NCBI RefSeq assembly: GCF_019263705.2
Contig: NZ_JADQDK010000001.1
Coordinates: 4,464,001-4,528,000, forward strand
Length of the DNA stretch: 64,000 bases
Reading direction: 5' to 3'
From: Pseudonocardia abyssalis
GTDB lineage: Bacteria; Actinomycetota; Actinomycetes; Mycobacteriales; Pseudonocardiaceae
Every line of letters begins with the position of its first letter. The stretch's first letter is position 1. The notes beneath the pieces were generated by a model. It saw only the letters and a list, made by a program, of their open reading frames with translations, did no database searches and had not been told where the DNA came from. A program made the position numbers and the translations under genes. Positions 21,621 to 39,931 of the stretch are shown one piece after another.

Positions 21621-21663
21621 GTGGGCCCCCGGGGGATCGAACCCCGAACCCGCGGATTAAAAG
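21621..21663. repeat. attL, 43-bp core
   Basis: This segment is identical to 39889-39931. It corresponds to the tRNA-Lys sequence from the anticodon loop to the 3' end plus one flanking base. The remaining 5' half of the tRNA is absent here, so this is the duplicated attachment core and not a second tRNA gene. Confidence 0.93.
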
Positions 21664-21774
21664 CACTTGCCTGTACCTGCGCCACGAGTTGCCCCCTGAG
21701 CTGGGAAAACTCCCGTGGAGCAGTGCTCTCGTAGCTTGCAATCCTCGGGTCTCTCCAACCCCGGGAGTTCCACT

Positions 21775-22650
21775 GTGGACGCAACACTTCTCGATGACTG
21801 GAAGCTCAACCTGATCATCCGCAACCGAGCACCACGGACCGTTGAGGACTACCTGAAGGTGGGTACGGCCTACGCAGCTTGGTGTGGTGAGCGCTCAGGG
21901 CTGACCAGGCGAGATGTACAGAGCTACCTGGCGCACCTCTCAACGGCTAGCAAGCCCTACTCCCCCGCCTACGTCGCCAAGGTCTACCGGACGCTGCAAC
22001 AGCTCTTCAGGTTCCTGGTTGACGAAGAGGTCATCGAGATCAGCCCGTTCATCAAGATGCGTCCGCCGCACGTACCTGAGCAGCCCGTACCGCTGCTGAC
22101 CGCTGAGGAAGTTGGGCGGCTGTTACACGTGTGTCGGGGCCGGACGTTCGAGGCTCTGCGTGACACAGCGCTGTTACGCGTTCTGCTTGACACAGGGATT
22201 CGTGTTACAGAACTGGTCGGCATTCAGCTTTGTGACATCGATTTCACGAGTCGCACAATCCTTGTAACAGGGAAGGGACGGCGTGACAGAACAGTTGTGT
22301 TCGGTGATCGCCCGGCTGAAGCACTGCGCCGTTACATCAGAGTTCGTGCGACACACAACCAGGCGTGTAACAGCTTCTTGTGGGTCGGGCCGAAGGGCTG
22401 TGTAACTGACTCCGGTGTGCGGCAGATGTTGACGCGACGGGGCGCACAAGCCGGTGTAACAGGCGTTCACCCGCACAGGTTCCGTCACCAGTTCGCCCAT
22501 GACTGGCTTTCCGCAGGTGGGAACGAGACAGACCTTCTACGTCTCGCGGGTTGGAGGTCGCGTCAGATGGTTGACAGGTATGCAGCCTCAGCGGCCGTCA
22601 CGAGAGCACAGGAAGCGCACAAACGACACCGCATCAGCGACAAGTACTGA
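21775..22650 (+). CDS. Tyrosine recombinase (phage integrase)
   Basis: 291 residues from GTG 21775, chosen because GGGAG lies 7 nt upstream and the longer frame has no domain content. The N-terminal SAM-like core-binding domain covers about 1-90. The catalytic domain follows with Arg in DTGIRVTELVG, Lys in VTGKGRRDRT, HxxR in HPHRFRHQFAH, the second His position occupied by Trp in LAGWRSRQMV, and the Tyr nucleophile in VDRYAAS. It sits 112 bp from attL and should integrate and excise the element at tRNA-Lys. A terminator follows the gene. Confidence 0.95.
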   Translation: MDATLLDDWKLNLIIRNRAPRTVEDYLKVGTAYAAWCGERSGLTRRDVQSYLAHLSTASKPYSPAYVAKVYRTLQQLFRFLVDEEVIEISPFIKMRPPHVPEQPVPLLTAEEVGRLLHVCRGRTFEALRDTALLRVLLDTGIRVTELVGIQLCDIDFTSRTILVTGKGRRDRTVVFGDRPAEALRRYIRVRATHNQACNSFLWVGPKGCVTDSGVRQMLTRRGAQAGVTGVHPHRFRHQFAHDWLSAGGNETDLLRLAGWRSRQMVDRYAASAAVTRAQEAHKRHRISDKY

Positions 22651-22676
22651 CACAGATGTGACACAATAGGAACAGA

Positions 22677-22716
22677 ACCCCCGAATGACTGTGCGGAACA
22701 GTTGTTCGGGGTGTTT
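22677..22716 (+). terminator. Rho-independent terminator after integrase
   Basis: An imperfect long hairpin pairs acccccgaa and actgt on the left with acagt and ttcggggt on the right, followed by gtttt. The position just after the integrase stop fits transcription termination. Confidence 0.7.
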
Positions 22717-22819
22717 TGTGTTTGCTGAGAAACATCTCAGGTAATGGTGACAAGTAGCCGCAATGAATCGATATATTATGCTATTCTCTTTTCATACCCA
22801 AAAACACAAGGAGAACAAA

Positions 22820-23077
22820 ATGACACTAAGTTGGGAAGACCAGCCAGCACGACAGATCATGAAGGATCAGAAGCGCAAAGTTACCCGTACAGCTAAGGCT
22901 ATGGGAATCCCGTACCTACGGCTACAGAGGACGCTAGAGGGACGAACTCACCCATGCGAGATCACTCGGGAGAAGCTTCCTGAGATCCTGGGTGTTCCGC
23001 TAGAACAGCTATTCGACGCTAACTCTCTTGCTAAGCCGTTCAACTACAAGATTCCTCAGGGCATGGGGTGCGAGTAA
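22820..23077 (+). CDS. Small Cro/CI-type helix-turn-helix protein
   Basis: 85 residues from ATG 22820, preceded by AAGGAGA. The helix-turn-helix is TRTAKAMGIPYLRLQRTLEG and the following PEILGVPLEQLFD is typical of phage XRE-like proteins. It may regulate the replication genes or lysogeny. The upstream 100 bp are AT-rich (gatatattatgct), a likely promoter. It is the only recognisable DNA-binding regulator next to the integrase, so it could be the repressor or the excisionase; the sequence cannot decide. Its stop overlaps the next ATG by 1 bp. Confidence 0.8.
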   Translation: MTLSWEDQPARQIMKDQKRKVTRTAKAMGIPYLRLQRTLEGRTHPCEITREKLPEILGVPLEQLFDANSLAKPFNYKIPQGMGCE

Positions 23078-24123
23078 TGGCACTCGGGACACTTGCACCG
23101 CTAAATAAGGAAACCCCCGGGGCATCACTCCCAGGGGCTACTACTACTCTCATGGACAAGTCAATGGTATCAGATAACGAACTACGCATCCCGCTAGTTA
23201 CACCAGAAACTCCAATGCTTGATGCAGCGCTTGCGTACGCAGAAGCGGGTTGGTTCATCATCCCAGTCAAGCAGTCGACTAAGCACCCTGGCTCTGTACT
23301 CGGTGGAGGCTGGGAAACTAAGTCATCCCGCGACCCTGCCGTCATCGCCGATTGGTTCCACTACTTCAACGGCCCGCGCGGTATCGCGCTGCACTGTGGC
23401 CGCTCAGGAGCTGTGGTTATCGACGTTGACCACCCGGACAAGGTCACTGAGGACCACCCGCTATATGGCCCGTTGTTCGTCACTACACCACCGTGGCAGA
23501 GCAGCCGGACGAACATTCCTCGTAAGGGTCACTACATCTTCACTCAGCCTGCCGGTCGCAATATCGGCAACTCACTAGGGATGCTGGCTGGTGGATGGGG
23601 TGACGTTCGCGGTGAGAACGGCGTCATCATCGTCTCACCGACTAAGCACGAGGATAGCTGGGACAACGGTCTATACCGCTGGGAGAGCACAGGAGCAGTA
23701 CCCGTACTTCCAGCGTCTATCGCTGACCTCCTACCTGACGCATCTGACAAGAGCCCCTACAGCTATGGAGGCGCAGAGCTACGCGAGTTCATCGAGACTT
23801 TTGAAGGGGGCACACACCCGCACCTCTTTAACGTCGTGCTCGATCAGGTGGAGGTACTACAGGCCGCTGGTGAAGCACGACACGACATCCACCTAAAGGC
23901 GCTCTGCTGGGCGTACCGGGATGTCATGGCTGGTTGCTACTCCGCTGAGATGGCGACTGAGTCTCTACGCGCCTGGTTCGATGCTGCTACCGGTGGTGGA
24001 CGAGAGTCCGAAGCTGAGCGAAACGAACTATGGGCATTGAACGCAGCACTTGATTACGACCCCTCAGAGCACGTTGTGCACGCTCCGAAACGACTACCCT
24101 CACTAGGAGACCACCGTGTCTGA
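23077..24123 (+). CDS. Bifunctional DNA primase/polymerase (Prim-Pol) domain protein
   Basis: 348 residues from ATG 23077; a GTG at 23068 is an alternative. The domain begins near residue 45 (ALAYAEAGWFIIPVKQSTK) and contains the catalytic GAVVIDVDHPD (hDhDh motif) near 120, RKGHYIFTQP and GGWGDVRGENGVIIVSPTKH. This is the Prim-Pol N-terminal domain found in actinophages and plasmids, which synthesises primers and extends DNA. The C-terminal about 120 residues are helical and may contact the helicase. It overlaps the ATPase gene by 8 bp. Confidence 0.9.
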   Translation: MALGTLAPLNKETPGASLPGATTTLMDKSMVSDNELRIPLVTPETPMLDAALAYAEAGWFIIPVKQSTKHPGSVLGGGWETKSSRDPAVIADWFHYFNGPRGIALHCGRSGAVVIDVDHPDKVTEDHPLYGPLFVTTPPWQSSRTNIPRKGHYIFTQPAGRNIGNSLGMLAGGWGDVRGENGVIIVSPTKHEDSWDNGLYRWESTGAVPVLPASIADLLPDASDKSPYSYGGAELREFIETFEGGTHPHLFNVVLDQVEVLQAAGEARHDIHLKALCWAYRDVMAGCYSAEMATESLRAWFDAATGGGRESEAERNELWALNAALDYDPSEHVVHAPKRLPSLGDHRV

Positions 24124-25345
24124 TCTACCGTCTCTAGGGCCATCTCAGCCCTCAACAGAGCCCAACTCAGTAGTCATGTCAATGGCAGACGCAAGAGCGC
24201 GTCGTGATGAATTCATGAAGCCTAAGACTCGAACAATTGACGTCGCTTCGGTCAGTGAATCCGCACTAGCAAAACTAGAAGCTCAGCTTCTCTCATCGGC
24301 TGACCTGGATGACCTACCACCGCGCATCCCGCTCATTAAGAACTGGCTTTACAAAGACTCCCTAGCCCGAATCCACGGCCACTCAGGGCACTACAAGACA
24401 TTTGTCATTCTCGATATGGCTTGTCACGTAGCTCTAGGACGGACATGGAGAGGCAACCGGGTAGACCAGGGGCTAGTGCTCTACATCGTCGCTGAGGGCA
24501 TCTCAGGCTTTCAGCAGCGGGTAAGAGCGTGGGAGCAGGAGTTCAACAACGGTGCTCGCATCCCGAAGAGTCAGTTGATGATTCTGCCTAAGCCGGTACA
24601 GGTTGGTGATCCCAATGAGTGGGCGCCGTTCATTGCGCTCGTAGCTAAGTACCGACCGGCGCTCATTGTTCTAGACACTCAGGCGCGGGTATCTGTCGGC
24701 CGTGAAGAAAACTCCAACACTGATATGGGTGTCTTCGTGGACTACCTAGAACAGATGCGTACTGAGTCCGGTTGCTGCGGAGTGCTCATCCACCACCGGG
24801 CTAAGGCTGGTAATGACGGCCGTGGAGCTGTAGGTGTCAAGGGAGCGCTGACAACTGAGCTAGCCGTTGAGAGGGGTGACGGCGAGTCAACAAAGATGAA
24901 CGTCACCATCCGTGCCGATAAGCAGAAGGACGGTGAAGAACGCGAGATCAAGACTTCTGTACGAGTTGTTGACCTCGTAGACAGCACCGGTGCGCCACGG
25001 CTTGATGAGGACGGCGACAAGGTCACCTCACTAGTGCTCGCAGAGATCAGCCTCTACGGCCCTAACAAGACCGTCATTGAGCCTCTACCCTCAATCTCTA
25101 AGGCTGACATTGTACTGGCCGTACTGCGCGACTCAGGAGGCGTTAAGACGATGACTGTTGGTCACAGCCTGGTTAAGACGCACTGCGACTCCATCGGCTA
25201 CAGGGGACTAGCCAGCCCAAGCTCTTTCAATCCGGTATGGCATGAGCTGATTGACTCAGAGCGCATCTGGAAAGACAAAGACATCGCAGGGGACACGCGC
25301 TACCGGGCTCATGACGATCGTCCCGCCGACAGGTTGTACAACTAA
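24116..25345 (+). CDS. RepA-like AAA/RecA-fold ATPase (replicative helicase candidate)
   Basis: 409 residues from GTG 24116. The Walker A motif is GHSGHYKT near residue 90, Walker B is RPALIVLDTQAR near 183, and a sensor-like VLIHHRAKAG lies near 222. This arrangement matches RepA/KaiC-like hexameric helicases of phages and plasmids. A winged-helix-like C-terminus (about 320-409) follows. Together with the Prim-Pol it forms a self-contained replication initiation module, and the iteron-like region begins immediately after its stop. Confidence 0.85.
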   Translation: MSDLPSLGPSQPSTEPNSVVMSMADARARRDEFMKPKTRTIDVASVSESALAKLEAQLLSSADLDDLPPRIPLIKNWLYKDSLARIHGHSGHYKTFVILDMACHVALGRTWRGNRVDQGLVLYIVAEGISGFQQRVRAWEQEFNNGARIPKSQLMILPKPVQVGDPNEWAPFIALVAKYRPALIVLDTQARVSVGREENSNTDMGVFVDYLEQMRTESGCCGVLIHHRAKAGNDGRGAVGVKGALTTELAVERGDGESTKMNVTIRADKQKDGEEREIKTSVRVVDLVDSTGAPRLDEDGDKVTSLVLAEISLYGPNKTVIEPLPSISKADIVLAVLRDSGGVKTMTVGHSLVKTHCDSIGYRGLASPSSFNPVWHELIDSERIWKDKDIAGDTRYRAHDDRPADRLYN

Positions 25346-25348: not shown

Positions 25349-25474
25349 ATTCAGTTGGTCCGTTCGAAGTGAACAAAAGTTCAGTTATTCAGTTCGAAGT
25401 GAACAAAAGTTCAGTTTGGACAGCCCACTGACCAGGGCTTATTCAGTTCAACTGAATTATTCACTTATTCAGTT
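25349..25474. repeat. Iteron-like repeats, candidate replication origin
   Basis: A 25-bp sequence beginning gttcgaagtgaacaaaag and ending ttcagtt occurs identically at 25362-25386 and 25392-25416 (30-bp spacing). The octamer attcagtt occurs at 25349, 25387, 25441 and 25467, and its complement aactgaat at 25450. The region is AT-rich and follows the primase and helicase genes. Directly repeated short motifs at this position are typical of an initiator-bound origin or of multiple operators. Confidence 0.65.
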
Positions 25475-25536
25475 CACCTCCCACCCCTTAGGGGGGAGAA
25501 CCGACCCCTAAAGTGAATAATAGCCAAAGTTCAACG

Positions 25537-25637: not shown

Positions 25638-25799
25638 ATGAGAGAAAACAAGAAAACCACAACCATTCAGGTCGCAGTCAGTCCAGAACTTAAAGCAGAG
25701 TTCGCCGTTGCGGCATCCCGCGATTACACCAGTGCAAGCAGCCTGGCACGACGCCTCATCATCGAATACCTACGTAGCCTAGAAGGAGATAAGAAATGA
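25638..25799 (+). CDS. Small ribbon-helix-helix-like protein
   Basis: 53 residues. KTTTIQVAVSPELKAEFAVA has the beta-strand plus first-helix pattern of Arc/CopG/MetJ-type DNA-binding proteins and ends in a second helix (SASSLARRLIIEYLRSLEG). No Shine-Dalgarno is present, but TAGTAT lies 6 nt before the ATG, which fits a -10 element and leaderless translation. It heads a chain of five tiny genes joined by ATGA overlaps and may autoregulate it. Confidence 0.7.
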   Translation: MRENKKTTTIQVAVSPELKAEFAVAASRDYTSASSLARRLIIEYLRSLEGDKK

Positions 25800-26059
25800 T
25801 CAGGTCATTCATCCCGCAGCCCTACCCGCTATGGTTGATCTACAGCGACAAAGAAGCCCTTGTCAAGAAACTCATCATTGGCTGGACCGAACCTACGTCA
25901 TGCATGGACGCCCATCCCGTAATTCAGGGCATCGATGGATGTTTGTACCCCATGGAACTCGCATGTCTCTACAATCCACTAATCACCAAAGATGACCTAA
26001 CCACGTTAGCCCTGGCTCGCCGTCAGCACAATCTAAACAACCTAGGAGACAACCGATGA
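25796..26059 (+). CDS. Small phage protein of unknown function
   Basis: 87 residues. The ATG overlaps the previous stop (ATGA). The sequence is soluble with mixed composition, contains two Cys residues (TSCMDAHP and LACLYNP), and ends LARRQHNLNNLGDNR. I do not recognise a family. Its phage-like composition and exact ATGA junctions on both sides support it as a real gene. Confidence 0.65.
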   Translation: MIRSFIPQPYPLWLIYSDKEALVKKLIIGWTEPTSCMDAHPVIQGIDGCLYPMELACLYNPLITKDDLTTLALARRQHNLNNLGDNR

Positions 26060-26208
26060 ACGCTGAAATGCAACTACCCCGCTGGATCGCTGCTCACCGG
26101 CGCACGTTGGGCCTCTTCACAAAGAACCACGTCAGGCCCGTTACTCAACTAAGTGCACCGAAACTACCGCTTAGCGCTCGATCACGGGCAACCGGGACCC
26201 TCAGATGA
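26056..26208 (+). CDS. Tiny basic phage protein of unknown function
   Basis: 50 residues, strongly basic (PRWIAAHRRTLGLFTKNHVR). It is linked by ATGA overlaps at both ends within the five-gene chain. No family is recognised; the junctions are the main evidence for coding. Confidence 0.5.
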   Translation: MNAEMQLPRWIAAHRRTLGLFTKNHVRPVTQLSAPKLPLSARSRATGTLR

Positions 26209-26348
26209 GCAAGAAAGTATTCAGTTACGTAGTCCTGATCTTCGTCGGACTCTTCATCGTCAACGCACCTACTACAGCAGCTTCCGCCATCAACACCGTT
26301 AGCTCATCAACCACACAGTTCGTAACCGAAATCGGAGCAAGCAAATGA
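26205..26348 (+). CDS. Tiny exported or membrane phage protein
   Basis: 47 residues. MSKKVFSYVVLIFVGLFIVN is a basic start plus a hydrophobic helix, followed by APTTAASA, which resembles a signal-peptide cleavage site, and a short Ser/Thr-rich remainder. It could be a signal-anchored holin-like peptide or a small secreted protein. ATGA overlaps join it to both neighbours. No family is recognised. Confidence 0.55.
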   Translation: MSKKVFSYVVLIFVGLFIVNAPTTAASAINTVSSSTTQFVTEIGASK

Positions 26349-26482
26349 CACTCACACTCATTACAGCCGCAGTATTCGGAGCGGTTCAGGCCGCGTACCT
26401 CGTGCACCTCAACCGGATCATGAAGCCACGTCAGGTGCCCACCGAGCAACCAGCCTCTAGGTTGTTTACGCATAGCTACTGA
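26345..26482 (+). CDS. Tiny single-helix membrane phage protein
   Basis: 45 residues. TLITAAVFGAVQAAYLVHLN forms one hydrophobic helix, followed by a basic tail (RIMKPRQVP). It is the last member of the ATGA chain. With the preceding gene it forms a pair of adjacent small membrane proteins, an arrangement seen in phage holin/antiholin pairs, but nothing in the sequence proves lysis activity. Confidence 0.5.
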   Translation: MTLTLITAAVFGAVQAAYLVHLNRIMKPRQVPTEQPASRLFTHSY

Positions 26483-26612: not shown

Positions 26613-26882
26613 GTGGGCTCATGGGACAAAGGGAGTACACGTAGATGGCGGCGTATCAGGGCGGGGGTATTACGGGATAACCGGGTAGCCACCGGGGGTA
26701 AGTGCCAGGTACATATCGACGGAGTCTGCACAGGTACAGCGGAAGTAGCTCACCACGTTCTAGGTAGAGCGGTAACCGGTGACGATCCACGCTACCTAGT
26801 AGCCTGCTGTGCTGCCTGCAACGGACACATTAACGAGCCAAGCAGACACAAGCCAAAGCCACGCAAGATTAGCAATTGGTAA
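26613..26882 (+). CDS. HNH endonuclease, packaging-associated type
   Basis: 89 residues from GTG 26613. The zinc-bound HNH core reads CQVHIDGVCTGTAEVAHHVL, then DPRYLVACCAACNGHIN, with the metal cysteines and the catalytic His and Asn. Small HNH proteins next to terminase assist cos cleavage in HK97-like phages, and this gene adjoins terL. It is convergent with terL, not collinear as in most phages. Confidence 0.85.
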   Translation: MGSWDKGSTRRWRRIRAGVLRDNRVATGGKCQVHIDGVCTGTAEVAHHVLGRAVTGDDPRYLVACCAACNGHINEPSRHKPKPRKISNW

Positions 26883-27693
26883 TCAGGAATAATTTTGGAA
26901 CCGGGTCCCGGTCAAAAAGTTCAGAGGAATTTTGGGACTCCAACACCCCGCCCCGTCCAAACTCTCTCCCTCAGAGGGCAGTCAGCGGTGACAGAGCAGC
27001 AGGAAGCGTCCGGGCGAGATGTACCGCACCGGCTAGCGCGTAGGCGCCATCAATAGCACCGGTCCCGCGACGGGCGTAGATGTACGCGTCACCGCGTCGG
27101 AGCTTCTGAGCTGAGTTGATATGCGCCGTCAGCATCGGGTCCCTAGGGTGGACTACAGCCCCAGCAACGACCCTCTCAGCGAGTCCCATGCAAACCGCCG
27201 TGACGTCACCCTTGATCTCTTCCAGCACGACACCACGCGGCGGCCACCCACGGTGCTCACGTAGGTCAGCGGCTAGGGAAGCAGCAGGGCCACCAGGGAA
27301 CCAGCCGATAGCTCTCGGGTTGACGCGCCGGACGAACTCAGGAAGCTCAGCACGGACTTGCTTCATGCAGCCGTAGCCATCCCACGCCGCCACCACTTCG
27401 ACGTGCACCCGGTCATCGACAACCGCAGCAGCCACCAGTGAGGCGTGCGAACCATCAAGGCTGACGTCGACACACAGCGCGACCCTCGACCGGATAGCGG
27501 CTAGATCGAGCGGCTTGTCAGTACCGCCGTTAGTCCACCGGTCAGGGTCGATAGCCGGGTCTAGAAGGCTCACCCGCTGGCACAGCACCTCGGTACGGAA
27601 CCCCGCTAGTTCCTCGCCACCGGCCGCCATAGCCCGTCGAGCCGCACCTACCAACGTGTCCAGTGACGTCCTGCGTCCTAGCTGCGGGTTGGC

Positions 27694-27702
27694 TTGGGCG
27701 AG
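27694..27702. repeat. Left target-site duplication of the IS
   Basis: ttgggcgag immediately precedes the left IS end and is identical to 29132-29140. It encodes LAQ of the terminase on the minus strand. Confidence 0.9.
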
Positions 27703-29131
27703 GAGCAATAGTCAAGACCTGTGGATGAAGATCTTTTAGGCGGCTGCTGGTTGGTGGTGGTCGTCGGGTCGTTCGACGAGCTTGCCGTTGACGAACAGGG
27801 CGCCTGCGCGGACGAGGGCGACCAGGTGCGGGCCGTTCACCGCGCGCCAGCGGTCCTGGGCGGCCTCGATGAGCTTGAACGCCATCGCCAGCCCGGCCGC
27901 CCGCGACCCGGGCCCGCGGGTGATCTTCGTGCGGTGCCGGACGGTGGCGAAGGTCGACTCGATCGGGTTGGTCGTGCGCAGGTGGATCCAGTGCTCGGCC
28001 GGGAAGTCGTAGACCGCCAACAACACCTCGACATCGTCGGTGATCTTTGCGACCGCCTTGGGGAACTTGGCCCCGTAGGCGGCCTCGAACGCCTTCACCG
28101 CGTCGAGGGCGTGGCGTCGGTCCTCGGCGTTCCAGATCTCCGCAAGCGCCTTCTTCGCCCCGGGATGCGCGCTCTTGGGTAGAGCACCCAGCACATTGGC
28201 GATCTTGTGGAACCAGCAGCGCTGCTCCCGTGTCGTGGGGAACACCTCGCGTAGCGCGCCCCAGAACCCCAGGGCGCCGTCGCCGACCGCGAGCACGGGG
28301 GCGCGCATCCCGCGCCGCGCGCAGTCACGCAGCAGGTCCGCCCAGGACTCGGTCGACTCCCGGTAGCCGTCGGCCAGGGCGACGAGTTCCTTGCGCCCGT
28401 CCGCGCGGACCCCGATCAGCACCAGCAGGCACAGCTTGTGCTCCTCCAAGCGGATGTTGACGTGGATCCCGTCGGCCCACAGGTAGACGTAGTCCGCGCC
28501 GGACAGGTCACGGGCGGCGAAGGTGCGCTGCTCGGCCTTCCAGGTCTCGGTCAGCTTCGTGATCACCGGCGCGGACAGCCCGGCGGTCGAGCCGAGGAAC
28601 TGGCCCAGGGCGGGCACGAAGTCGCTGGTGGACAGGCCGTGCAGGTAGAGAAGCGGCAACACCTCGGTGATCTTCGGGGTCTTGCGGCACCACGGCGGCA
28701 GGATCGCCGAGGAGAACCGCCGACGCTCGCCCGTCTCGGGGTCGGTGCGCCGGTCGTTGACCCGCGGCACGACCACCTCGACCGCTCCGGCGCTGGTCAG
28801 GACCTCGCGGGGCTGGTGGGTGCCGTTGCGCACCACCAGCCGCCGGCCGTGCTCGTCGCGCTCGGCGGCGAATCGGGCGATGTAGTCGTCGACCTCGGCC
28901 TGCAAGGCTTCGGCCAGCATCCGGCGGGCGCCCTCGCGGACGAGCTCGTCGATCAGACCCGAACCGCCGCCTTCGCGGCGGGGGTCATCGGCGTCGGCAG
29001 CTCCAGGAACTACGGTGAGCACGGGTCGTACCCTTCCGACCGGCGTTGGCGCGCCGATCTTGCTTGATGGCCTCAAGATCACCGGAAGGGTACGGCCCCT
29101 CCAGGTCATCCACAGGTTTCAAGCATTGCTC
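27703..29131. mobile_element. IS256-family insertion sequence, 1429 bp
   Basis: The ends are imperfect inverted repeats starting gagcaat and sharing acctgtggatga about 14-16 nt in. A 9-bp direct duplication flanks it, within the 8-9 bp typical of IS256-family elements. The G+C content equals that of the chromosome and is far above that of the prophage, so the IS came from the host side. One transposase ORF fills the element. Confidence 0.93.
27736..29022 (-). CDS. IS256-family (mutator-type) transposase
   Basis: 428 residues from GTG 29020-29022 (LTVVPGAADADDP start, as in relatives); longer in-frame starts exist. Family hallmarks are GLIDELVREGARRMLAEALQ, RLVVRNGTHQPREVLTSAG, YVYLWADGIHVNIR (first catalytic Asp), PVLAVGDGALGFWGALREVF (second Asp), QRCWFHKIANVL, and TTNPIESTFATVRHRT (Glu of DDE). 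The protein cuts and joins the IS ends. It looks complete and probably active. Confidence 0.93.
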   Translation of the reverse strand: MLTVVPGAADADDPRREGGGSGLIDELVREGARRMLAEALQAEVDDYIARFAAERDEHGRRLVVRNGTHQPREVLTSAGAVEVVVPRVNDRRTDPETGERRRFSSAILPPWCRKTPKITEVLPLLYLHGLSTSDFVPALGQFLGSTAGLSAPVITKLTETWKAEQRTFAARDLSGADYVYLWADGIHVNIRLEEHKLCLLVLIGVRADGRKELVALADGYRESTESWADLLRDCARRGMRAPVLAVGDGALGFWGALREVFPTTREQRCWFHKIANVLGALPKSAHPGAKKALAEIWNAEDRRHALDAVKAFEAAYGAKFPKAVAKITDDVEVLLAVYDFPAEHWIHLRTTNPIESTFATVRHRTKITRGPGSRAAGLAMAFKLIEAAQDRWRAVNGPHLVALVRAGALFVNGKLVERPDDHHQPAAA

Positions 29132-29140
29132 TTGGGCGAG
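29132..29140. repeat. Right target-site duplication of the IS
   Basis: ttgggcgag follows the right IS end and is identical to 27694-27702. Confidence 0.9.
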
Positions 29141-33704: not shown

Positions 33705-33706
33705 CT

Positions 33707-34111
33707 ATGAATATTGCCGCGCTAATGGACGAACTAGGTGAGGCTCTGAAGTCTATTGAAGGCTTGCGGGTCTACCCGTACTACATCGACCGCGTAGCGC
33801 CTCCTGCGGCTGTTGTGGGGTGGCCTGAGCCGATCACCTTCGATGAGACCTTCGGCCGTGGCTCTGATCGGTTGACGCTTCCGGTTCACGTAGTCGTCGG
33901 CAAGGTTGACGCACGAAGCGCCAGAGATGAACTGAGCCTGTTCCTAGCCGGTTCGGGTCCATCCAGCATTAAGCAAGCTCTAGACAACGGCACATATCTT
34001 AACGCCGACGCAGTAACCGTGCGAGAAGCGCGGGTTGAAGTTCTAACCATCGCAGGCATCGACTACCTATCTGGAGTCTTTGACGTCGACATCTACGGCT
34101 CAGGGAGCTGA
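33707..34111 (+). CDS. Tail-completion or terminator-like protein
   Basis: 134 residues from ATG 33707. The start MNIAALMDELGEALKSIEGL and the beta-rich middle (RLTLPVHVVVGKVDARSARD) resemble the small neck/tail-terminator proteins of siphophages that cap the tail tube. Position between adaptor and tail tube supports this. Function is inferred mainly from gene order. Confidence 0.65.
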   Translation: MNIAALMDELGEALKSIEGLRVYPYYIDRVAPPAAVVGWPEPITFDETFGRGSDRLTLPVHVVVGKVDARSARDELSLFLAGSGPSSIKQALDNGTYLNADAVTVREARVEVLTIAGIDYLSGVFDVDIYGSGS

Positions 34112-34116: not shown

Positions 34117-34521
34117 ATGGCATTTGTTCACGGTAAGAATACATTCGTCTCACTTGACGGAGATGACCTGTCCGCTTTCACCAACAACGTAGCGTTCAAC
34201 CGCTCAGCGGACTCTCACGACGTCACTACGTTCGGCAAGAACAGCAAGAACTTCCAGAGCGGTCTAAAGGACGGCACAGCAACTATCCAGGGTGTTTACG
34301 ACAGCACAGCTACAGGACCCGGGGCCATCATCCGTCCGCTGATCGGTGGGCTTGCAGTGGAGTTCATCTACAAGCCAGAAGGCAGCGGTGCGGGCAAGCC
34401 GGTAAGTACAGTTGACGCAATCGTCACCGGCTACGAAGAGACAGCCCCAGTAGCCGACATGGTGACTTGGTCATGCTCGCTTCAGTTCAGTGACGACATC
34501 GTTGACTCGGTAGGTGTCTGA
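34117..34521 (+). CDS. Major tail (tube) protein
   Basis: 134 residues. FVHGKNTFVSLDGDDLSAFT, SADSHDVTTFGKNSKNFQSG and the beta-rich remainder match the small tail-tube proteins of actinobacterial siphophages, which stack as hexamers. It abuts the chaperone gene by 1 bp. Confidence 0.85.
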   Translation: MAFVHGKNTFVSLDGDDLSAFTNNVAFNRSADSHDVTTFGKNSKNFQSGLKDGTATIQGVYDSTATGPGAIIRPLIGGLAVEFIYKPEGSGAGKPVSTVDAIVTGYEETAPVADMVTWSCSLQFSDDIVDSVGV

Positions 34522-34856
34522 TGGCTTACGCAAACGCTGATGACCTATTCAGCCAGGTAGGAGATAACACCGAAGACGTCGACCTAGGTAACGGTCGAAT
34601 CGTGAAGGTTCGCGGGTTGACCCGGTTTGAGCTGCTGCGAAACGTCCACGGCACAGATGACGCGCTGCTAGTCGAGCGCCGGAACATCGCGTGCTGCGTC
34701 GTAGAGCCCAAGCTGACCGAAGCTCAGGTAGAGCGGTGGCAGAAGTCTTCTACTCCTGACGTACTCGGCAAGGTAACTGACGCGGTTCGTCGGCTGTCTG
34801 GTCTAGCAGAGGGTGCCCAGAAAAGCGATGTACCTAGCGATGGAGACGACTCCTGA
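34521..34856 (+). CDS. Tail assembly chaperone, upstream frame
   Basis: 111 residues in the first frame of a typical siphophage G/GT-type pair: a small helical protein between tube and tape measure (VKVRGLTRFELLRNVHGTDD, LTEAQVERWQKSSTPDVLGK). These chaperones coat the tape measure during tail assembly. The second frame begins inside its 3' end. A possible +1 slip at AAAA (34821-34824) would fuse the two frames into about 161 residues. Confidence 0.75.
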   Translation: MAYANADDLFSQVGDNTEDVDLGNGRIVKVRGLTRFELLRNVHGTDDALLVERRNIACCVVEPKLTEAQVERWQKSSTPDVLGKVTDAVRRLSGLAEGAQKSDVPSDGDDS

Positions 34857-35007
34857 CCTAGAGTTCGAGTTTTTCCTAGCCGAAAAGCTCAGCATGACCG
34901 TCTCACGCCTACGACAAGAGATGAGCGTTCAAGAGTTCGTAGGGTGGGGCGTCTATTACGGCCGTAAAGCACAGCGACAAGAATTGGAGGCTAAGCGTCG
35001 TGGCTAA
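34828..35007 (+). CDS. Tail assembly chaperone, downstream frame
   Basis: 59 residues from ATG 34828; an in-frame GTG at 34813 is also possible. DLEFEFFLAEKLSMTVSRLR then MSVQEFVGWGVYYGRKAQRQ has the WGVYY-type ending commonly seen in the T part of siphophage tail chaperones. It lies in the +1 (equivalently -2) frame relative to the upstream chaperone, so it is made either by frameshifting or by independent initiation. Confidence 0.7.
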   Translation: MYLAMETTPDLEFEFFLAEKLSMTVSRLRQEMSVQEFVGWGVYYGRKAQRQELEAKRRG

Positions 35008-35413
35008 TGACAAAGTGTCCGTCGAAGGTCTTCGTGAGTTCCAACGTGCTTTGCGGACCATCGATAAGGATAAGGCTAAAGGTCTACGGGTAGCGCTGAA
35101 CGAGTCTGCCGATCTCCTGATTACTCGTACCCGCACACTAGTGCCTAGGCGTACCGGTAGAGCTGCTGCGTCCCTAAAGCCACGTTCTAGCCAGACATCG
35201 GTACGTATCGCGGTCGGTGGAAACAAAGCCCCCTACTACCCGTGGCTTGACTTCGGAGGGCGCGTAGGACCGGCTAAGTCAGTCGTTCGTCCGTTCCTGA
35301 CACAAGGGCGCTACTTGTACCCAACGCTTACATCAAACAGAGCAGAGTTCGAGCGCATTCTAGAAGATGCCCTTACCGGACTCGCCCGTGACGTCGGTTT
35401 GGACGTGGACTAA
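35000..35413 (+). CDS. HK97 gp10-like tail/neck protein
   Basis: 137 residues from GTG 35000. VEGLREFQRALRTIDKDKAK and TRTRTLVPRRTGRAAASLKP, with APYYPWLDFGGRVGP in the middle, match the HK97 gp10 family that helps join head and tail. It is usually encoded before the tail tube; here it follows the chaperones and precedes the tape measure. It overlaps both neighbours. Confidence 0.8.
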   Translation: MANDKVSVEGLREFQRALRTIDKDKAKGLRVALNESADLLITRTRTLVPRRTGRAAASLKPRSSQTSVRIAVGGNKAPYYPWLDFGGRVGPAKSVVRPFLTQGRYLYPTLTSNRAEFERILEDALTGLARDVGLDVD

Positions 35414-36687
35414 TGGCTAACCAAGTAACCCTGACGTTTGCGGGTGATGCTGACCAGCTAGCTAAAGAAGCTAAGAAGGCTGAAGCTGCTACTAAAGGTG
35501 TAGGTGATGCAGCTCTCGAATCATCTAAGGACATCGGTAAGGCCGCTGAAGAGTCAAAGAGTATGGGTGACCGTATGTCGAACCTGGGCAACACGGTCAG
35601 CGGAGCTATTGACTCGTTCGACGCCATCGCCGGATCAGTGCAGGCGTTCGCCGATATTCAGGATGCAGGACGTCAAAGTGCCGCACGTATGGAACGTGCC
35701 CTTATCGACGTTGAACAGGCTCAGTCCGATCTCAACCAAGCCGTGCTAGATGGCAACCAGGCAGGAATTGACGCGGATCAGGCTCGTCTAGATGGCAACC
35801 AGGCGCTCATTGACCAGAAGGTAGCTACACAGGATCTTGCTGCTGCCATCGGTGAGTTCGGTGCCGGGTCGGCAGAAGCTTTGCAGGCTCAGCAGGATCT
35901 TGACCAGGCGCGGTTAGATGGTACTCAGGCGACTGCTGACTATGAGCAGGCTCTCACTGATGGTAACCAGAGCCTTATTGACGCACGCTCAGCGACGCTC
36001 GATCTAGCAGACGCTCAGCACGAGGTTGACCCCGGTCCTTTGCAGGGACTAGCTAACACATTCGGTACCTACGCGCCGCTGCTAAGTGGTGTAGTCAGCG
36101 TTATCGCACTAGCAACAGCCGCACAGTGGAGCTTGAACTTTGCGTTCCTAGCCTCACCTACTACCTGGATCGTCGCGGGTATCGTCGCGCTAGTCGGTGC
36201 AATTATCTGGATCGCTACGCAAACAACCTGGTTCCAAGACATCTGGACTTCAGCATGGTCCGGCATCAAAGGCGCAGCTTCATCAGCTTGGGATTTCATC
36301 AAGAAGATTCCAGGTTGGCTAGGTTCGACGTTCGCTGGTATTGGTAATGCCATCTCCGGTCCTTTCAAGTCAGGGTTCAACGCTATTGCTAGGGCTTGGA
36401 ACAACTCCATCGGTCGGCTGTCTTGGACCGTTCCGGGTTGGGTTCCGTTCATCGGTGGCAACTCGATCTCAGTTCCTAAGCTACCGACATTCCACACAGG
36501 AGGCGTCGTACCAGGCGCTAAGGGTTCTGAGGTTATGGCGATGCTACAGGCCGGTGAGCGGGTTATCCCTGCTGATCGTGCAGGTAGCGGTGGGGGCGGA
36601 ACGATTACTTTCACTGGCAACACCGATTCAGCGTTTGCATCACTCTTCATGTCGCTGGTACGTACCGGCCAAATTCAGATTAATTAG
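35413..36687 (+). CDS. Tape measure protein, unusually short
   Basis: 424 residues. The N-terminal half is coiled coil with imperfect repeats around DGNQAGIDADQARLDGNQAL. Hydrophobic segments follow (LLSGVVSVIALATAA and TWIVAGIVALVGAIIWIATQ), and the C-terminus has the common tape-measure motif HTGGVVPGAKGSEVMAMLQA then GERVIPADRAG. Tape measures set tail length at roughly 0.15 nm per residue, implying a tail of about 60-65 nm. Most siphophage tape measures are two to four times longer. Confidence 0.88.
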   Translation: MANQVTLTFAGDADQLAKEAKKAEAATKGVGDAALESSKDIGKAAEESKSMGDRMSNLGNTVSGAIDSFDAIAGSVQAFADIQDAGRQSAARMERALIDVEQAQSDLNQAVLDGNQAGIDADQARLDGNQALIDQKVATQDLAAAIGEFGAGSAEALQAQQDLDQARLDGTQATADYEQALTDGNQSLIDARSATLDLADAQHEVDPGPLQGLANTFGTYAPLLSGVVSVIALATAAQWSLNFAFLASPTTWIVAGIVALVGAIIWIATQTTWFQDIWTSAWSGIKGAASSAWDFIKKIPGWLGSTFAGIGNAISGPFKSGFNAIARAWNNSIGRLSWTVPGWVPFIGGNSISVPKLPTFHTGGVVPGAKGSEVMAMLQAGERVIPADRAGSGGGGTITFTGNTDSAFASLFMSLVRTGQIQIN

Positions 36688-36695: not shown

Positions 36696-37166
36696 ATGGC
36701 TCACACACCGCCGGTCGTCGGCTCAGCTACATGGGGTGGCGTACTCAACACCGCTCTACAAGACATTGACGACACCGCTACCGACTCACTTGCTGGTGGA
36801 GGCGCAGGCGTTAGTGCTCAGCAGGACACCGGATCTACCTCCTACGTCGATCTAGGGACAGTCGGCCCTACCGTGGCTGTGACCCTCACCGAAGCGCGGA
36901 CCGTCATCGTGTTCGTCAAGGCTGAGGTGCTACAACTGAGCACGACCGATGACGTGTTTATGTCATTCGCAGCGTCCGGCGCTACTACTCTCGCTGCTTC
37001 AGATGCCCGCTCAGTACGTCACAACGGTTCTGGAACGGCTGAGGCTTACAGCTCCTTTGCTGTTGTCAACTGCGCCGCTGGTACCACTACCTTTACAGCT
37101 AAGTACCGCGTTCAGGGTGGCAGCGGACGCTTTGTCAACCGTGAGATTGCAGCTATCGTCTCATGA
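36696..37166 (+). CDS. Minor tail protein, beta-rich
   Basis: 156 residues. It begins MAHTPPVVGSATWGGVLNTA and then has a beta-sandwich-like body (TSYVDLGTVGPTVAVTLTEA, AEAYSSFAVVNCAAGTTTFT). It lies between tape measure and the large tail-tip gene and overlaps the latter by ATGA. A distal tail or fibre-tip role is inferred from position; no enzymatic motif is visible. Confidence 0.65.
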   Translation: MAHTPPVVGSATWGGVLNTALQDIDDTATDSLAGGGAGVSAQQDTGSTSYVDLGTVGPTVAVTLTEARTVIVFVKAEVLQLSTTDDVFMSFAASGATTLAASDARSVRHNGSGTAEAYSSFAVVNCAAGTTTFTAKYRVQGGSGRFVNREIAAIVS

Positions 37167-39325
37167 CCTACGGCAGCGGACTATACGGAAGCGGGGTGTA
37201 CGGAGGTGCCCTAGCCGGTGTGTTGATTCACGGTCACAGGTTGGTAGTCGAACTAGCCTTTGGCGCTGACCTTGCCGACTCTGGTAGTTGGCTGTGGACC
37301 GACGTCACTACTGATGTACGGGTTGCTGACGGCGTCCACACGAGCCTAGGGCGCAATGACGAAGCCTCCGTGTCCCAGCCTGCAAACTGCACGTTTACGC
37401 TTGACAACTCTGACGGTGCTTACGATGTCAACCCGCGTAGCCCCAACGTTCGCCGCAACACACCGGTTCGTGTGACCATCGATGACGTCGGCATCTTTCA
37501 GGGCTACGCGAACGGGTTTACTCCGCTGCACATCCTTGGCCGTGGTGACAAGAAAGTTCAGGTGTCAGCGTCGGGGATCTTGCGTCGGCTCCTTCAGGGA
37601 TCTCCAGTCCTCAGTTCATCCCTACGACGTGGATTGGTTGACGAACCGGGAGTTATTGGCTACTGGCCTTGTGAAGACAGTAAGAACTCATCCCGTCTTG
37701 ACCCGTTGGTAGGGTCTCAGTCCATCAGTTTCACAGGTGGTCCGCCGCGATTCGGAGCCAATACTGTCTTTGACGCTTCTACTGCTCTTCCTGAGTTTGG
37801 CGGGGCGGCTTGTGTAGCTCCCATCGATGCCTACCCGGCTACCGGTGCTTCATCTGTCCGCTGTCTGTTTGGCTTCCCTGACCCTGCTGATGATGCCGGT
37901 GAGGTCGTAGTGATGCGCGTCTACACAACGGGCACGATTCGCCGTTGGGATGTTGCATACCGTGGTTCTGATGGTGCGGTCAGGCTGACGGCTTACAACG
38001 CCTTTGACGAGTTCGTCGCGTCCTCCGGCCTGATTGCCTTCGGAGTCAACGGTAGCGGCCGATTCTTCTCATTGGAGATGACACAGACAGGTTCTGACAT
38101 CGCGTGGGTTCTGCGGACAATCGCGCAGTACTCGAACCTAGGGGGTATTGCAGGAACGATTCCGGTTCACAACTTCGGCACCGTCACTGCTGTACATCTG
38201 AACCCCAATGCGACGCTAAAGACTGTTGGTTTCGGTCACCTCATCGTGCAGGACACCGTCACCCCTCAGCAGACGTTGCAGGACGAACTTGACGCCCACA
38301 ACGGTGAACAGGCTTTCGTTCGCATGAATCGCCTAGCTGCTGAGAACAACCTCGATATCACCATCTTTGGCGACGGTATCCCGGGTAGCGGGTCTCGCCC
38401 GGTTGACAGGATGGGTCCGCAGCCGTTGAGCACACTGGTTGATTTGCTGCGTGAATGCGAGACTGTCGACCAAGGAGTGTTGCACGACGGAATTGGCGAT
38501 GGCTTGGTGATGCGCCTGAAGTACGCGAGAGAGAACCGATCACCGGCGTTGGTCATCCCTGCTACATCGCTAGCTCAGCCGTTCGCACCTGTTGACGATG
38601 ACCAGCGGACCCGTAACCGTGTTGAAGCCAAGCGCTCTGCCGGAACTACCGCCGTCTACGAGGATTCTGACGGACCACTAGGTACCAACGCAGTCGGCAT
38701 CTACGATTCTTCGGTGACCATTAATGCGCAATTCGATTCTTCTATGCAATTGTTCGCTGGATGGTTGGTCTCCCTAGGTACAGTGACCGGCTACCGCTAC
38801 CCGAGCCTTAGCGTGGATCTCAGGGCGTCTCCTGAGCTAGCAGCGGCTTGGCTTGGCGTTGTGCCCGGTCGCCGGGTGGATGTCACTGGATTGTCTGACT
38901 TACTAGGTGGACCGGTTGACACGCTGTCAGTTCTGGTTGAGGGCGTCGAACAATCCATTACAGATGGTCAGTGGGTAGGCACGTTGAAGTGTTCGCTCTA
39001 CGACCCGTGGCGAATCGGCGTGGTGGCTGAAGAGACGGGGGACACCGGTGAGTACTTGCTGCGGCCGTTGTCTGACGGCTCAACTCTCGTAACAGGTGTT
39101 TCAGCCGGGGCTACAAGCATCTCCGTGTCAACCCCGTCAGGTCCGCGCTGGACTACAAGGGCAGATGACTTCCCGTTCATCATTGAGGTAGGCGGCGCAA
39201 CGGCAACCGTCACTGGCATCACCGGTACATCTTCACCGCAGACCTTTACAATTAACTCACTTGAATACAGCGCTAGTTCCGGGGCTGAGGTTACTTTGCA
39301 CCGACCAACCAGATTAGGACTATAA
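37163..39325 (+). CDS. Large tail-tip/baseplate protein with LamG-like insert
   Basis: 720 residues. The N-terminus is a YGSGLYGSGVYGG repeat followed by a Dit/Tal-like region (about 20-140; LDNSDGAYDVNPRSPNVRRN). A concanavalin/LamG-like domain follows (about 165-340, opening GVIGYWPCEDSKNSS), then a Tal-like region (about 370-600; LDITIFGDG, AWLGVVPGRRVDVTGLSD) and a C-terminal beta domain. It probably combines the distal-tail and tail-associated functions with carbohydrate binding for host recognition. No lysozyme or peptidase motif is evident. Confidence 0.78.
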   Translation: MTYGSGLYGSGVYGGALAGVLIHGHRLVVELAFGADLADSGSWLWTDVTTDVRVADGVHTSLGRNDEASVSQPANCTFTLDNSDGAYDVNPRSPNVRRNTPVRVTIDDVGIFQGYANGFTPLHILGRGDKKVQVSASGILRRLLQGSPVLSSSLRRGLVDEPGVIGYWPCEDSKNSSRLDPLVGSQSISFTGGPPRFGANTVFDASTALPEFGGAACVAPIDAYPATGASSVRCLFGFPDPADDAGEVVVMRVYTTGTIRRWDVAYRGSDGAVRLTAYNAFDEFVASSGLIAFGVNGSGRFFSLEMTQTGSDIAWVLRTIAQYSNLGGIAGTIPVHNFGTVTAVHLNPNATLKTVGFGHLIVQDTVTPQQTLQDELDAHNGEQAFVRMNRLAAENNLDITIFGDGIPGSGSRPVDRMGPQPLSTLVDLLRECETVDQGVLHDGIGDGLVMRLKYARENRSPALVIPATSLAQPFAPVDDDQRTRNRVEAKRSAGTTAVYEDSDGPLGTNAVGIYDSSVTINAQFDSSMQLFAGWLVSLGTVTGYRYPSLSVDLRASPELAAAWLGVVPGRRVDVTGLSDLLGGPVDTLSVLVEGVEQSITDGQWVGTLKCSLYDPWRIGVVAEETGDTGEYLLRPLSDGSTLVTGVSAGATSISVSTPSGPRWTTRADDFPFIIEVGGATATVTGITGTSSPQTFTINSLEYSASSGAEVTLHRPTRLGL

Positions 39326-39326
39326 A

Positions 39327-39821
39327 ATGGCGTTTACTGCTGGACAGAAAGTACGGGCATCTGACCTCAACGAACAGGGCGTCATCAAGGCCCGCGCAGT
39401 TCGGACATCCAACACCGGTACGTCAACAGGAGCTACAGTTGGCATCCTGCGGCTAGATGACATCCCTGTGGTTGCCGGTCGTGCTTACCGAATCACGATG
39501 ACAGGAGGCGTTTACCCGACAGTCGTTAACTCGGCGCGGGCTGACGTCACACTTCGGTTCACTACGACAGGTGCGACTCCGACAACCTCTAGCCCGATCC
39601 TCCTGCTGACAGGTACACAGATGTTCACGGCGCAGTTCGTAGAGCGGTTCTATGCCGAGACGATCTACGTACCCAGCACATCGTTCGACCTGTCTCTGTT
39701 GCTGTGCTTCCAGACGGTCGGGTCATCAGCCGTTGCGTCGTACGGCGCTACCACGTGGCCGACAGAGATCACCATTACCGACGTCGGCAGCGACACGGGC
39801 AACGTAGGTGTCAGCATCTAG
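39327..39821 (+). CDS. Minor tail/fibre-type protein
   Basis: 164 residues. The start MAFTAGQKVRASDLNEQ is common to small beta-rich proteins at the 3' end of actinophage tail operons. The rest is predicted beta structure (RAYRITMTGGVYPTVVNSAR). It is the last phage gene before attR, and no lysis gene follows. Receptor-binding tip or fibre is the likeliest role, from position and family. Confidence 0.65.
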   Translation: MAFTAGQKVRASDLNEQGVIKARAVRTSNTGTSTGATVGILRLDDIPVVAGRAYRITMTGGVYPTVVNSARADVTLRFTTTGATPTTSSPILLLTGTQMFTAQFVERFYAETIYVPSTSFDLSLLLCFQTVGSSAVASYGATTWPTEITITDVGSDTGNVGVSI

Positions 39822-39888
39822 TCCTCTGCTCTGGACACCCTTCCTGACGTCCCAGGCACCCACCTCTAGCCACGTTTCGCCTGGTAAA

Positions 39889-39931
39889 GTGGGCCCCCGG
39901 GGGATCGAACCCCGAACCCGCGGATTAAAAG
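39889..39931. repeat. attR, 43-bp core
   Basis: Identical to attL at 21621-21663. It covers the 3' part of the intact tRNA-Lys gene from the anticodon loop to the discriminator base, so the phage supplies the tRNA 3' end after integration. Confidence 0.93.

What the first reader, a model, noticed from the sequence alone, without database searches (positions are those of the whole stretch)
21621..39931. Minimal ~16.8-kb siphovirus-like prophage without a recognisable lysis gene
Between the two att copies are integrase, replication, HNH, terminase and a full head-tail set, but I find no endolysin, amidase or lysozyme motif on either strand; the tail operon runs directly into attR. The length without the IS (about 16.8 kb) is near the lower limit known for siphoviruses. 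The element may be a minimal phage with a novel lysis strategy, a helper-dependent satellite that makes its own particles, or a decayed phage.
Basis: partly seen in the sequence, partly recalled or inferred. Interest (0 to 1): 0.72.

Follow-up and report, generated by a model that had tools for sequence, protein, structure and literature searches.

The report
Small prophage lacking its lysis genes
A 16.8-kb virus-like element in an actinobacterial chromosome carries genes for integration, replication, head and tail but none recognisable for bursting the cell, a gap it shares with about half of the complete relatives examined, which suggests that such elements may depend on another virus, or on the host, to get out.

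Summary
Between two identical 43-bp att copies (the right one is the 3' part of an intact tRNA-Lys) lie 18,268 bp. A 1,429-bp IS with a perfect 9-bp target duplication sits inside the large terminase, leaving 16,830 bp. No endolysin was found by PHROGs, Pfam or six-frame lysin HMMs; the largest unassigned ORF lying mostly outside known genes is 87 aa.

The element belongs to a widespread family of mostly 16-18-kb integrating siphovirus-like elements of Actinomycetota; no phage record searched is close. The lysis cassette is optional: of 21 complete members, 11 carry a lysin (8 of the 11 at the tail-end locus that is empty here) and 10 have none that I could detect. The nearest small complete relatives (L117, L216, G020) lack it, so the gap most simply predates the IS. 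A 45-kb phage contig with closely related head-tail genes carries a holin-like ORF plus endolysin at that locus, so direction of change is open.

Best reading: this copy is inactivated by the IS, and its lineage, lacking a lysin, depended on another phage's or the host's lysis. That mechanism is inferred, not shown. Decay, or a cryptic small lysis peptide, remain live rivals.

The parts
21621..21663 (.). left att copy, 43 bp, identical to right copy
   Evidence: second copy in genome also seen
21715..22650 (+). tyrosine integrase, 311 aa
   Evidence: Pfam PF00589 5.5e-29; PHROGs integrase
22763..23077 (+). HTH/repressor-like protein (weak; true start may be later)
   Evidence: phrog_2328 0.026; no useful Pfam match
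23068..24123 (+). primase/polymerase (Prim-Pol)
   Evidence: PF09250 5e-23
24116..25345 (+). AAA_25 replicative helicase-like ATPase
   Evidence: PF13481 1.4e-32
25350..25479 (.). direct repeats (30-bp pair, 16-bp pair) after the helicase; possible origin or operator (inferred)
   Evidence: D2 and D9
25638..25799 (+). 53-aa ribbon-helix-helix-like ORF, first of five tiny ORFs chained by 4-bp overlaps
   Evidence: PF07878 0.0072, below cut-off
25796..26059 (+). 87-aa ORF, unknown; second of the chain
   Evidence: no family
26056..26208 (+). 50-aa ORF, unknown; third of the chain
   Evidence: no Pfam family
26205..26348 (+). 47-aa ORF with one hydrophobic stretch; candidate small membrane protein
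   Evidence: hydropathy 2.1; no lysis family
26345..26482 (+). 45-aa ORF with one hydrophobic stretch; candidate small membrane protein
   Evidence: hydropathy 1.7; no lysis family
26613..26882 (+). HNH endonuclease
   Evidence: phrog_144 1.1e-5
26971..27708 (-). large terminase, C-terminal piece (beyond the IS; searched apart)
   Evidence: phrog_9 5.5e-24
27703..29131 (-). IS256-type insertion sequence with transposase ORF 27736-29109; 9-bp TSD on both sides
   Evidence: phrog_2331 transposase 7.5e-103; the name IS256 is recalled
28985..29917 (-). large terminase, N-terminal piece (reading frame runs on into the IS; searched apart)
   Evidence: phrog_9 9.3e-42
29826..30119 (-). small terminase (weak)
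   Evidence: phrog_83 0.015; similar ORF at the same place in e.g. L003, L009, L010, L014
30158..31363 (+). portal
   Evidence: phrog_12 1.6e-83
31363..31929 (+). head maturation protease
   Evidence: phrog_80 5.2e-43
31926..33128 (+). major capsid protein (HK97 type)
   Evidence: phrog_10 6.7e-58; PF05065
33144..33704 (+). head-tail adaptor
   Evidence: phrog_442 1.9e-19
33686..34111 (+). tail terminator
   Evidence: phrog_17840 2.1e-21
34117..34521 (+). major tail protein
   Evidence: phrog_10528 4.2e-21
34521..35007 (+). two overlapping tail assembly chaperone-like ORFs (34521-34856, 34813-35007)
   Evidence: phrog_14766 1.2e-5 for the second; first by position and homology only
35000..35413 (+). 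neck / tail completion protein
   Evidence: phrog_5 6.3e-13
35413..36687 (+). short tape measure, 424 aa
   Evidence: phrog_34082 3.1e-21
36696..37166 (+). minor tail protein, 156 aa
   Evidence: phrog_7565 2.1e-14
37163..39325 (+). tail-tip hub, 720 aa, with a lectin-like insert (fold inferred from a model)
   Evidence: phrog_5313 7.7e-123; model pLDDT 79, best PDB match T5 tail-tip protein 7zhj_b 9.4e-13
39327..39821 (+). terminal all-beta tail fibre-like protein, 164 aa (fold inferred from a model)
   Evidence: model pLDDT 73; top PDB match a cyanophage portal-tail complex chain 7.7e-5, then virus capsid and TNF-like lectin chains
39822..39888 (.). empty lysis locus: 67 bp between last tail gene and attR
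39889..39962 (-). intact tRNA-Lys(ttt); its 3' 43 bp are the right att copy

Best explanation
Shown: this is an integrated siphovirus-like element of 16.8 kb with its own integration, replication, packaging, head and tail genes and no recognisable endolysin, now interrupted by an IS in the large terminase. It belongs to a large family of mostly 16-18-kb elements in which the lysis cassette is an optional module, most often at the tail end. Inferred: its lineage lacked the cassette before the IS arrived, and lysin-less members excise, replicate and build their own small siphovirus particles, but are released only when the cell is opened by another agent: a co-resident or superinfecting phage, or host autolysis. 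They would then be lysis cheaters or lysis-dependent satellites. This copy itself can no longer package by its own terminase (inferred from the interruption).
For: Anatomy. No lysin: PHROGs/Pfam; six-frame lysin HMMs give 0 hits here and in the 9 other lysin-less complete elements, while 26 of 29 known lysins were recovered when left out; largest unassigned ORF mostly outside genes 87 aa. The two terminal tail proteins model as tail folds. Patchy cassette: 21 complete elements, 11 with and 10 without lysin. The window element, L117 and L216 separate from the other 18 at support 100, with G020 at 82; all four lack a lysin. Lysin-less V017, L402, M117 and L190 have terminal repeats as of circular DNA.
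Against: No helper is shown: the host genome holds no second portal (phrog_12), HK97 capsid (PF05065) or phrog_9 terminase. V009, placed next to the window element in the larger tree, has a lysin, so an independent recent loss here is possible. Lysin-less members are less often circular than lysin-bearing ones: 4 of 10 against 9 of 11 (Fisher p 0.08; IMG/VR records alone 4 of 8 against 9 of 9, p 0.03), which also fits decay. Status differs between close sisters (L173 with, L190 without), so the lysin-less state need not be long lived. The dN/dS values do not separate selection before from after the loss. Clustering of the lysin-less state on the tree is weak (5 changes against 7.3 on average for shuffled labels, fraction at or below 0.07). 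A cryptic lysis peptide cannot be excluded.
Confidence: 0.45

Rival explanations
1. Decay or domestication: the lysis cassette is lost first or early when a small prophage is being inactivated, because lysis is what harms the host; lysin-less copies are dead ends that still look whole, and this copy with its IS in the terminase is one of them.
For: IS in the terminase. A close sister pair with and without lysin (L173, L190) shows that the cassette changes easily. Lysin-bearing elements are more often found with circular ends.
Against: Apart from the IS the gene set here is open. Four lysin-less relatives have ends as of circular DNA, and five that were listed keep full-length terminase ORFs: 515, 495, 500, 499 and 515 aa in L117, L216, V017, L175 and G020. 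The absence is shared by the nearest small complete relatives.
Confidence: 0.3
2. Cryptic autonomous lysis: one of the tiny membrane peptides (47 or 45 aa here; other small membrane ORFs in relatives) acts as a pore or as an inhibitor of wall synthesis and triggers host autolysins, so no endolysin is needed.
For: Two hydrophobic ORFs in a chain of five ORFs with 4-bp overlaps, 25638-26482. Several lysin-less relatives keep a small hydrophobic, holin-like ORF at the tail end (L402, L216, V012, M117). Isolated Arthrobacter cluster AP phages have no identified endolysin (passages of PMC5513430).
Against: The two ORFs match no lysis family and lie in the early region, not with the late genes. Small membrane ORFs also occur in lysin-bearing relatives, so they do not track the gap.
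Confidence: 0.2
3. An undetected, highly divergent endolysin is encoded in the element.
For: Libraries miss several lysins of this very family: Pfam names the catalytic domain in none of 7 M15-like lysins tested (G410, CATE, L398, L400, L405, L173, V009), NCBIfam finds nothing in 7 of 9 lysins tested, and 3 of 29 lysins were missed in the leave-out test. ORFs longer than 104 aa that overlap assigned genes exist and were checked by HMM only.
Against: No unassigned ORF above 87 aa lies mostly outside assigned genes; no six-frame hit; the two terminal tail proteins model as tail folds.
Confidence: 0.05

Closest known systems
Gordonia cluster CW phages (17.1-17.7 kb, temperate) and other minimal actinosiphophages (Rhodococcus RRH1, Arthrobacter cluster AN)
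   Same: Size; siphoviral head-tail genes filling most of the genome; CW phages are temperate with an attP corresponding to an attB that overlaps a tRNA gene (passages of PMC5559632; PMC5513430).
   Different: CW phages form plaques and cluster AN has lysis functions in two genes; the element here has none. Its capsid is at best 38% identical among the phage records listed. CW genomes themselves were not compared here.
Microbacterium phage BonaeVitae (Orlajensenviridae, 17.45 kb)
   Same: Similar late gene order and size.
   Different: Annotated endolysin, membrane protein and holin after the tail genes, the place that is empty here; terminase only 28.6% identical.
Capsid-forming PICIs (cf-PICIs)
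   Same: HNH, terminases, portal, protease, capsid and connectors carried by a small island (as described in passages of PMC10690885).
   Different: cf-PICIs depend on a helper for tails; this element has a complete tail module. Capsid relatives in contigs that look tail-less do exist (e.g. L221, L222, L228).
Streptomyces satellites MulchRoom and MiniFlayer
   Same: Actinobacterial, small, encode their own encapsidation genes; MulchRoom has a tyrosine integrase (passages).
   Different: They lack primases, whereas this element has Prim-Pol and a helicase; MulchRoom's tail is suggested to come from its helper.

Membership tests
Autonomous minimal temperate siphophage | complete head, neck and tail gene set | tested here: met
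Autonomous minimal temperate siphophage | integrase with att copies at both ends | tested here: met
Autonomous minimal temperate siphophage | own recognisable lysis gene | tested here: not met
Autonomous minimal temperate siphophage | uninterrupted large terminase | tested here: not met
   IS at 27703-29131
Autonomous minimal temperate siphophage | plaque formation or particle release without another phage | not testable with these tools
   needs induction
cf-PICI | island encodes capsid, packaging and connector genes | tested here: met
cf-PICI | no tail genes; tails from helper | tested here: not met
   MTP, TMP, hub and fibre genes present
Mulch/Flayer satellite family | structural genes but no primase | tested here: not met
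   Prim-Pol PF09250
Phage satellite in general | dependence on a helper phage | not testable with these tools
   missing lysin is suggestive only; no second prophage of this terminase, portal or capsid type in the host
Gene transfer agent | no integrase, no att, packages random host DNA (definition recalled) | tested here: not met
   integrase and att present; packaging not testable

The most novel reading that the evidence does not exclude
A large share of a widespread family of 16-18-kb actinobacterial elements, for which I found no description, are lysis-only satellites: they integrate, replicate, package and build complete tailed particles by themselves and have given up only the lysis cassette, exploiting the endolysin of co-resident phages as a public good. 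Close sister elements with and without the cassette (L173 and L190, 87.7% DNA identity over 8.7 kb) would be cooperator and cheater.
Probability: 0.3. Interest if true: 0.8.

Novelty: new variant of a known kind. Interest (0 to 1): 0.55.

Why it matters
The satellites described in the passages seen borrow capsids, tails or replication from a helper, and lysis along with them; an element that borrows only lysis would fill the far end of that spectrum and would make the idea of lysis as a shared good among co-resident phages testable with natural sister pairs. It also shows that 'no Pfam endolysin' is a weak test in actinobacterial phages, since several likely lysins of this family escape Pfam and NCBIfam.

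Tried and rejected
Hidden lysin in the tail proteins: judged unlikely from fold models and fold search of the 720-aa and 164-aa proteins. The models rest on 16 and 14 sequences. The hub's list also holds sialidases and receptor-binding domains of clostridial neurotoxins at query TM-scores of 0.18 to 0.24; I read these as beta-sandwich matches of the lectin-like insert, but sialidases are enzymes, so this is a reading, not a proof. The 164-aa list also holds virus capsid chains. phrog_971 'endolysin' on the tape measure: read as a tape-measure match. cf-PICI and Mulch/Flayer membership: defining features not met.

dN/dS between L175 and L190 (0.18-0.36 for portal, capsid, adaptor, tail terminator, neck, tail tube and tape measure; 0.47 for TerL; about 1 for hub and fibre) was meant to show selection after lysin loss; dropped as proof, because lysin-bearing L173 falls next to L190. 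L383 and L384 were first taken as lysin-less, then moved after reading a 266-aa amidase-like protein, later supported by PHROGs. L173 was likewise moved after reading a 293-aa protein, which no library names. L238 (terminal repeat 151 bp, no hub homologue labelled) was set aside and not counted. L403 (integrase to last tail gene about 17.3 kb, host-like genes after, no lysin hit) was not counted because its left end is not in the contig.

Naming limits: of the 11 complete lysin-bearing elements, 5 lysins have library support as lysis genes (L399, L400, L236, L383, L384), 3 carry the phrog_32486 domain of unknown function (G410, L398, L405), which in V009 is followed by a PG_binding_1 domain over the Pfam cut-off, and 3 (CATE, L401, L224) rest on my own HMMs or on motifs recognised by eye; L224's protein matched tape-measure families weakly. 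'M15-like', 'XhlA-like' and 'holin-like' are recalled labels. Two of the 10 lysin-less elements (L402, M117) were judged by HMM and by reading only; their proteins were not put through the libraries.

A look at a second prophage region in the G020 genome for a helper lysin gave nothing usable: my gene caller failed there and only weak six-frame hits appeared. The 160-aa HExxH protein at the tail end of the G020 element matched nothing. Papers: eight searches listed no description of this family or of lysin-less members; only passages of PMC10690885, PMC5513430 and PMC5559632 were read, the rest seen as listings; the library lacks most subscription papers.

Full report
What is there. The element lies between two identical 43-bp repeats, 21621-21663 and 39889-39931; the right copy is the 3' part of an intact tRNA-Lys. 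Its GC content is mostly 0.50-0.61 outside the IS, against about 0.73 in the flanks. Gene families were assigned with PHROGs and Pfam. A 1,429-bp IS256-type element at 27703-29131, with a perfect 9-bp target duplication, splits the large terminase; what is left is 16,830 bp. The two terminase pieces each match phrog_9 and were only ever searched apart.

Is a lysis gene absent? Yes, as far as sequence can tell. None of the families found is a lysis family, apart from phrog_971 on the tape measure. Of 254 ORFs of at least 20 aa, 26 lie mostly outside assigned genes, the largest 87 aa; the only other protein without a firm name, apart from the small terminase candidate and the last tail protein, is the 104-aa HTH-like one. 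Longer ORFs that overlap assigned genes were tested only by the six-frame lysin HMMs, without a hit. The two terminal tail proteins were modelled from alignments of 16 and 14 sequences: the 720-aa protein (pLDDT 79) matches tail-tip hubs, best T5 7zhj_b, and the 164-aa protein (pLDDT 73) is all-beta and matches phage tail, virus capsid and TNF-like lectin chains.

The family. Capsid relatives at E 0.001 occur in 17 of 200 genomes of the bacterial family and 23 of 397 of the order; tail-tube relatives in 23 of 390 genomes of the family; each count includes the window's own genome and weak matches. In 50,697 phage records no match reached 60% identity: capsid 378 records, best listed 38%; hub 33 records, best listed 32%; tape measure 173 records, best listed 30%; N-terminal terminase piece 507 records, best listed 49%. 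So no isolated phage of this family was found there.

Completeness and lysis status. I annotated 72 records with a home-made gene caller (42, 30 new). Complete, tail-bearing elements were those with long direct repeats at both ends of the element, terminal repeats as of a circular contig, or flanking host (or tandem) DNA on both sides. Terminal repeats were tested for the records held, long repeats for 24 of the first 42 and for the 32, so the set is not exhaustive. It has 21 members, L238 set aside. Without a detectable lysin, 10: the window element, G020, V012, V017 (17,370 bp circle), L402 (16,481), M117 (17,010), L190 (16,817), L117 (repeat 59 bp, 15,849), L216 (repeat 49 bp in tRNA-Met, 17,036), L175 (repeat 45 bp in tRNA-Ala, 16,094). 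With a lysin, 11: G410, CATE (Catellatospora, L003), L398, L399, L400, L401, L405, L236, L224 (terminal repeat only 32 bp), L383, L384. This is a convenience sample, not a census.

Where the lysin sits. In 8 of the 11 it lies after the tail genes, the place that is empty here (G410, CATE, L399, L400, L236, L224, L401, L405); in 2 upstream of the terminase (L383, L384) and in 1 between capsid and adaptor (L398). G114, not in the set of 21, has a GH25 enzyme there (PF01183 1e-23). V009, a 45-kb phage contig, has 60-70% identity to the window's terminase pieces, portal, capsid, tail tube and HNH and falls next to it in a larger tree (support for that node not shown; the node joining both to L404 has 78, and the whole clade with L117, L216, G020 and others 96). 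In V009 a holin-like 97-aa ORF and a 218-aa lysin follow the tail genes; that lysin carries a PG_binding_1 domain over the Pfam cut-off.

Sensitivity of the negative result. Pfam and NCBIfam miss several of these lysins, so I built HMMs from 33 of them and scanned six frames of the records held in the script: no hit in the 10 lysin-less complete elements at E up to 0.5. Leaving out each M15-like or amidase sequence with its near relatives, 26 of 29 were still found; the two smaller groups were not tested this way. Pfam and PHROGs scans of 145 proteins from 15 records taken as lysin-less at the time (one of them, L173, later moved, and its lysin was in the set and went unnamed), and a PHROGs scan of 80 proteins including 7 of the window, showed no lysis family among the 25 most frequent families displayed, except phrog_971; 38, 95 and 8 rarer families were not displayed.

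Evolution. On a tree of six head-tail proteins for the 21 elements the window element, L117 and L216 separate from the rest at support 100 and, with G020, at 82; all four lack a lysin. Lysin status needs 5 changes, against 7.3 on average for shuffled labels (fraction at or below 0.07), so the clustering is weak. The larger tree puts lysin-bearing L173 beside lysin-less L190 (87.7% DNA identity over 8.7 kb), where the 77-aa holin-like ORF and the lysin of L173 are matched by about 210 bp without a called gene in L190. So the cassette is gained or lost repeatedly. In the clade of the window element its absence is shared by the complete small members and most simply predates the IS, but V009 shows that an independent loss cannot be excluded.

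Activity in relatives. In G410 a separate 17,230-bp contig matches an integrated copy in two pieces (no mismatches, nine gap openings) that overlap by 13 bp in the contig; 445 bp of the integrated copy are missing from the contig. That is what an excised circle would give; this element has a lysin. Ends as of circular DNA exist for lysin-less members too (V017, L402, M117, L190), but less often: 4 of 10 against 9 of 11, with G410 counted as integrated (p 0.08; IMG/VR records only 4 of 8 against 9 of 9, p 0.03). This fits lower output of lysin-less elements, whether from dependence or decay.

Mechanism. The economical reading is that lysin-less members are complete except for release and use the lysis of another phage or of the host. 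Nothing here shows a helper: the host genome has no second phrog_12 portal, PF05065 capsid or phrog_9 terminase; G020 has one more capsid and portal elsewhere, whose lysis genes I could not read. Decay and a cryptic lysis peptide, for which the 47- and 45-aa hydrophobic ORFs at 26205-26482 are candidates, remain open. For this copy, packaging by its own terminase is very likely lost in any case.

Known kinds. Small actinosiphophages of 14-18 kb are known; BonaeVitae (annotation) and Arthrobacter cluster AN (passages) have lysis genes, and Gordonia CW phages form plaques (passages). Isolated Arthrobacter cluster AP phages with no identified endolysin (passages) warn that an absent annotation is not proof of dependence. 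cf-PICIs and the Mulch/Flayer satellites share part of the plan but lack tails or primases (passages of PMC10690885). The host is probably Pseudonocardia: the first 20 kb of its 33-kb second contig match a Pseudonocardia broussonetiae plasmid over 42% at 90% identity.

Noticed in passing
window 25638-26482: Five tiny ORFs (53, 87, 50, 47, 45 aa) in a row, each overlapping the next by 4 bp; the first looks like a ribbon-helix-helix protein and the last two are hydrophobic.
   Followed up: partly
L102 + L094 (G206 contig 4, 27,393 bp, same genus): A contig whose portal gene appears to run across its ends, so perhaps circular, with a related head-tail module plus ParA-like, large FtsK/TraB-like (names by eye) and integrase genes, and no lysin HMM hit: a possible phage-plasmid.
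   Followed up: partly
L113/L114 (IMGVR_UViG_3300036819_000183, 28 kb): A complete member and part of a second, different member of the family sit in tandem beside host genes that look like comM and dprA (by eye).
   Followed up: no
L104 and L105/L106 (G410): A 17,230-bp contig in a two-contig assembly looks like the excised form of an element that is also integrated in the chromosome; the two differ by nine small gaps and a 445-bp stretch absent from the contig.
   Followed up: partly
L062:3207-3686: The G020 element carries at the tail end, on the opposite strand, a 160-aa protein with a signal-peptide-like start and an HExxH motif that matches no Pfam, PHROGs, NCBIfam or PDB entry.
   Followed up: partly
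L221, L222, L228, L125, L220, L144: Capsid relatives in contigs with integrase or primase, terminase, portal, protease and capsid but no labelled tail genes, i.e. cf-PICI-like elements or fragments sharing the capsid family.
   Followed up: no
window 21621-39931 and L062: The window element and the G020 element have GC near 0.55 in hosts near 0.7; most relatives' contigs lie at 0.6-0.72, though L226, L227 and L287 are also near 0.54.
   Followed up: no
L175, L190, L173, L413: Hub and fibre genes of close relatives mostly diverge much faster (dN/dS 0.6-1.2) than portal and capsid (0.2-0.4), as expected of receptor-binding parts.
   Followed up: partly
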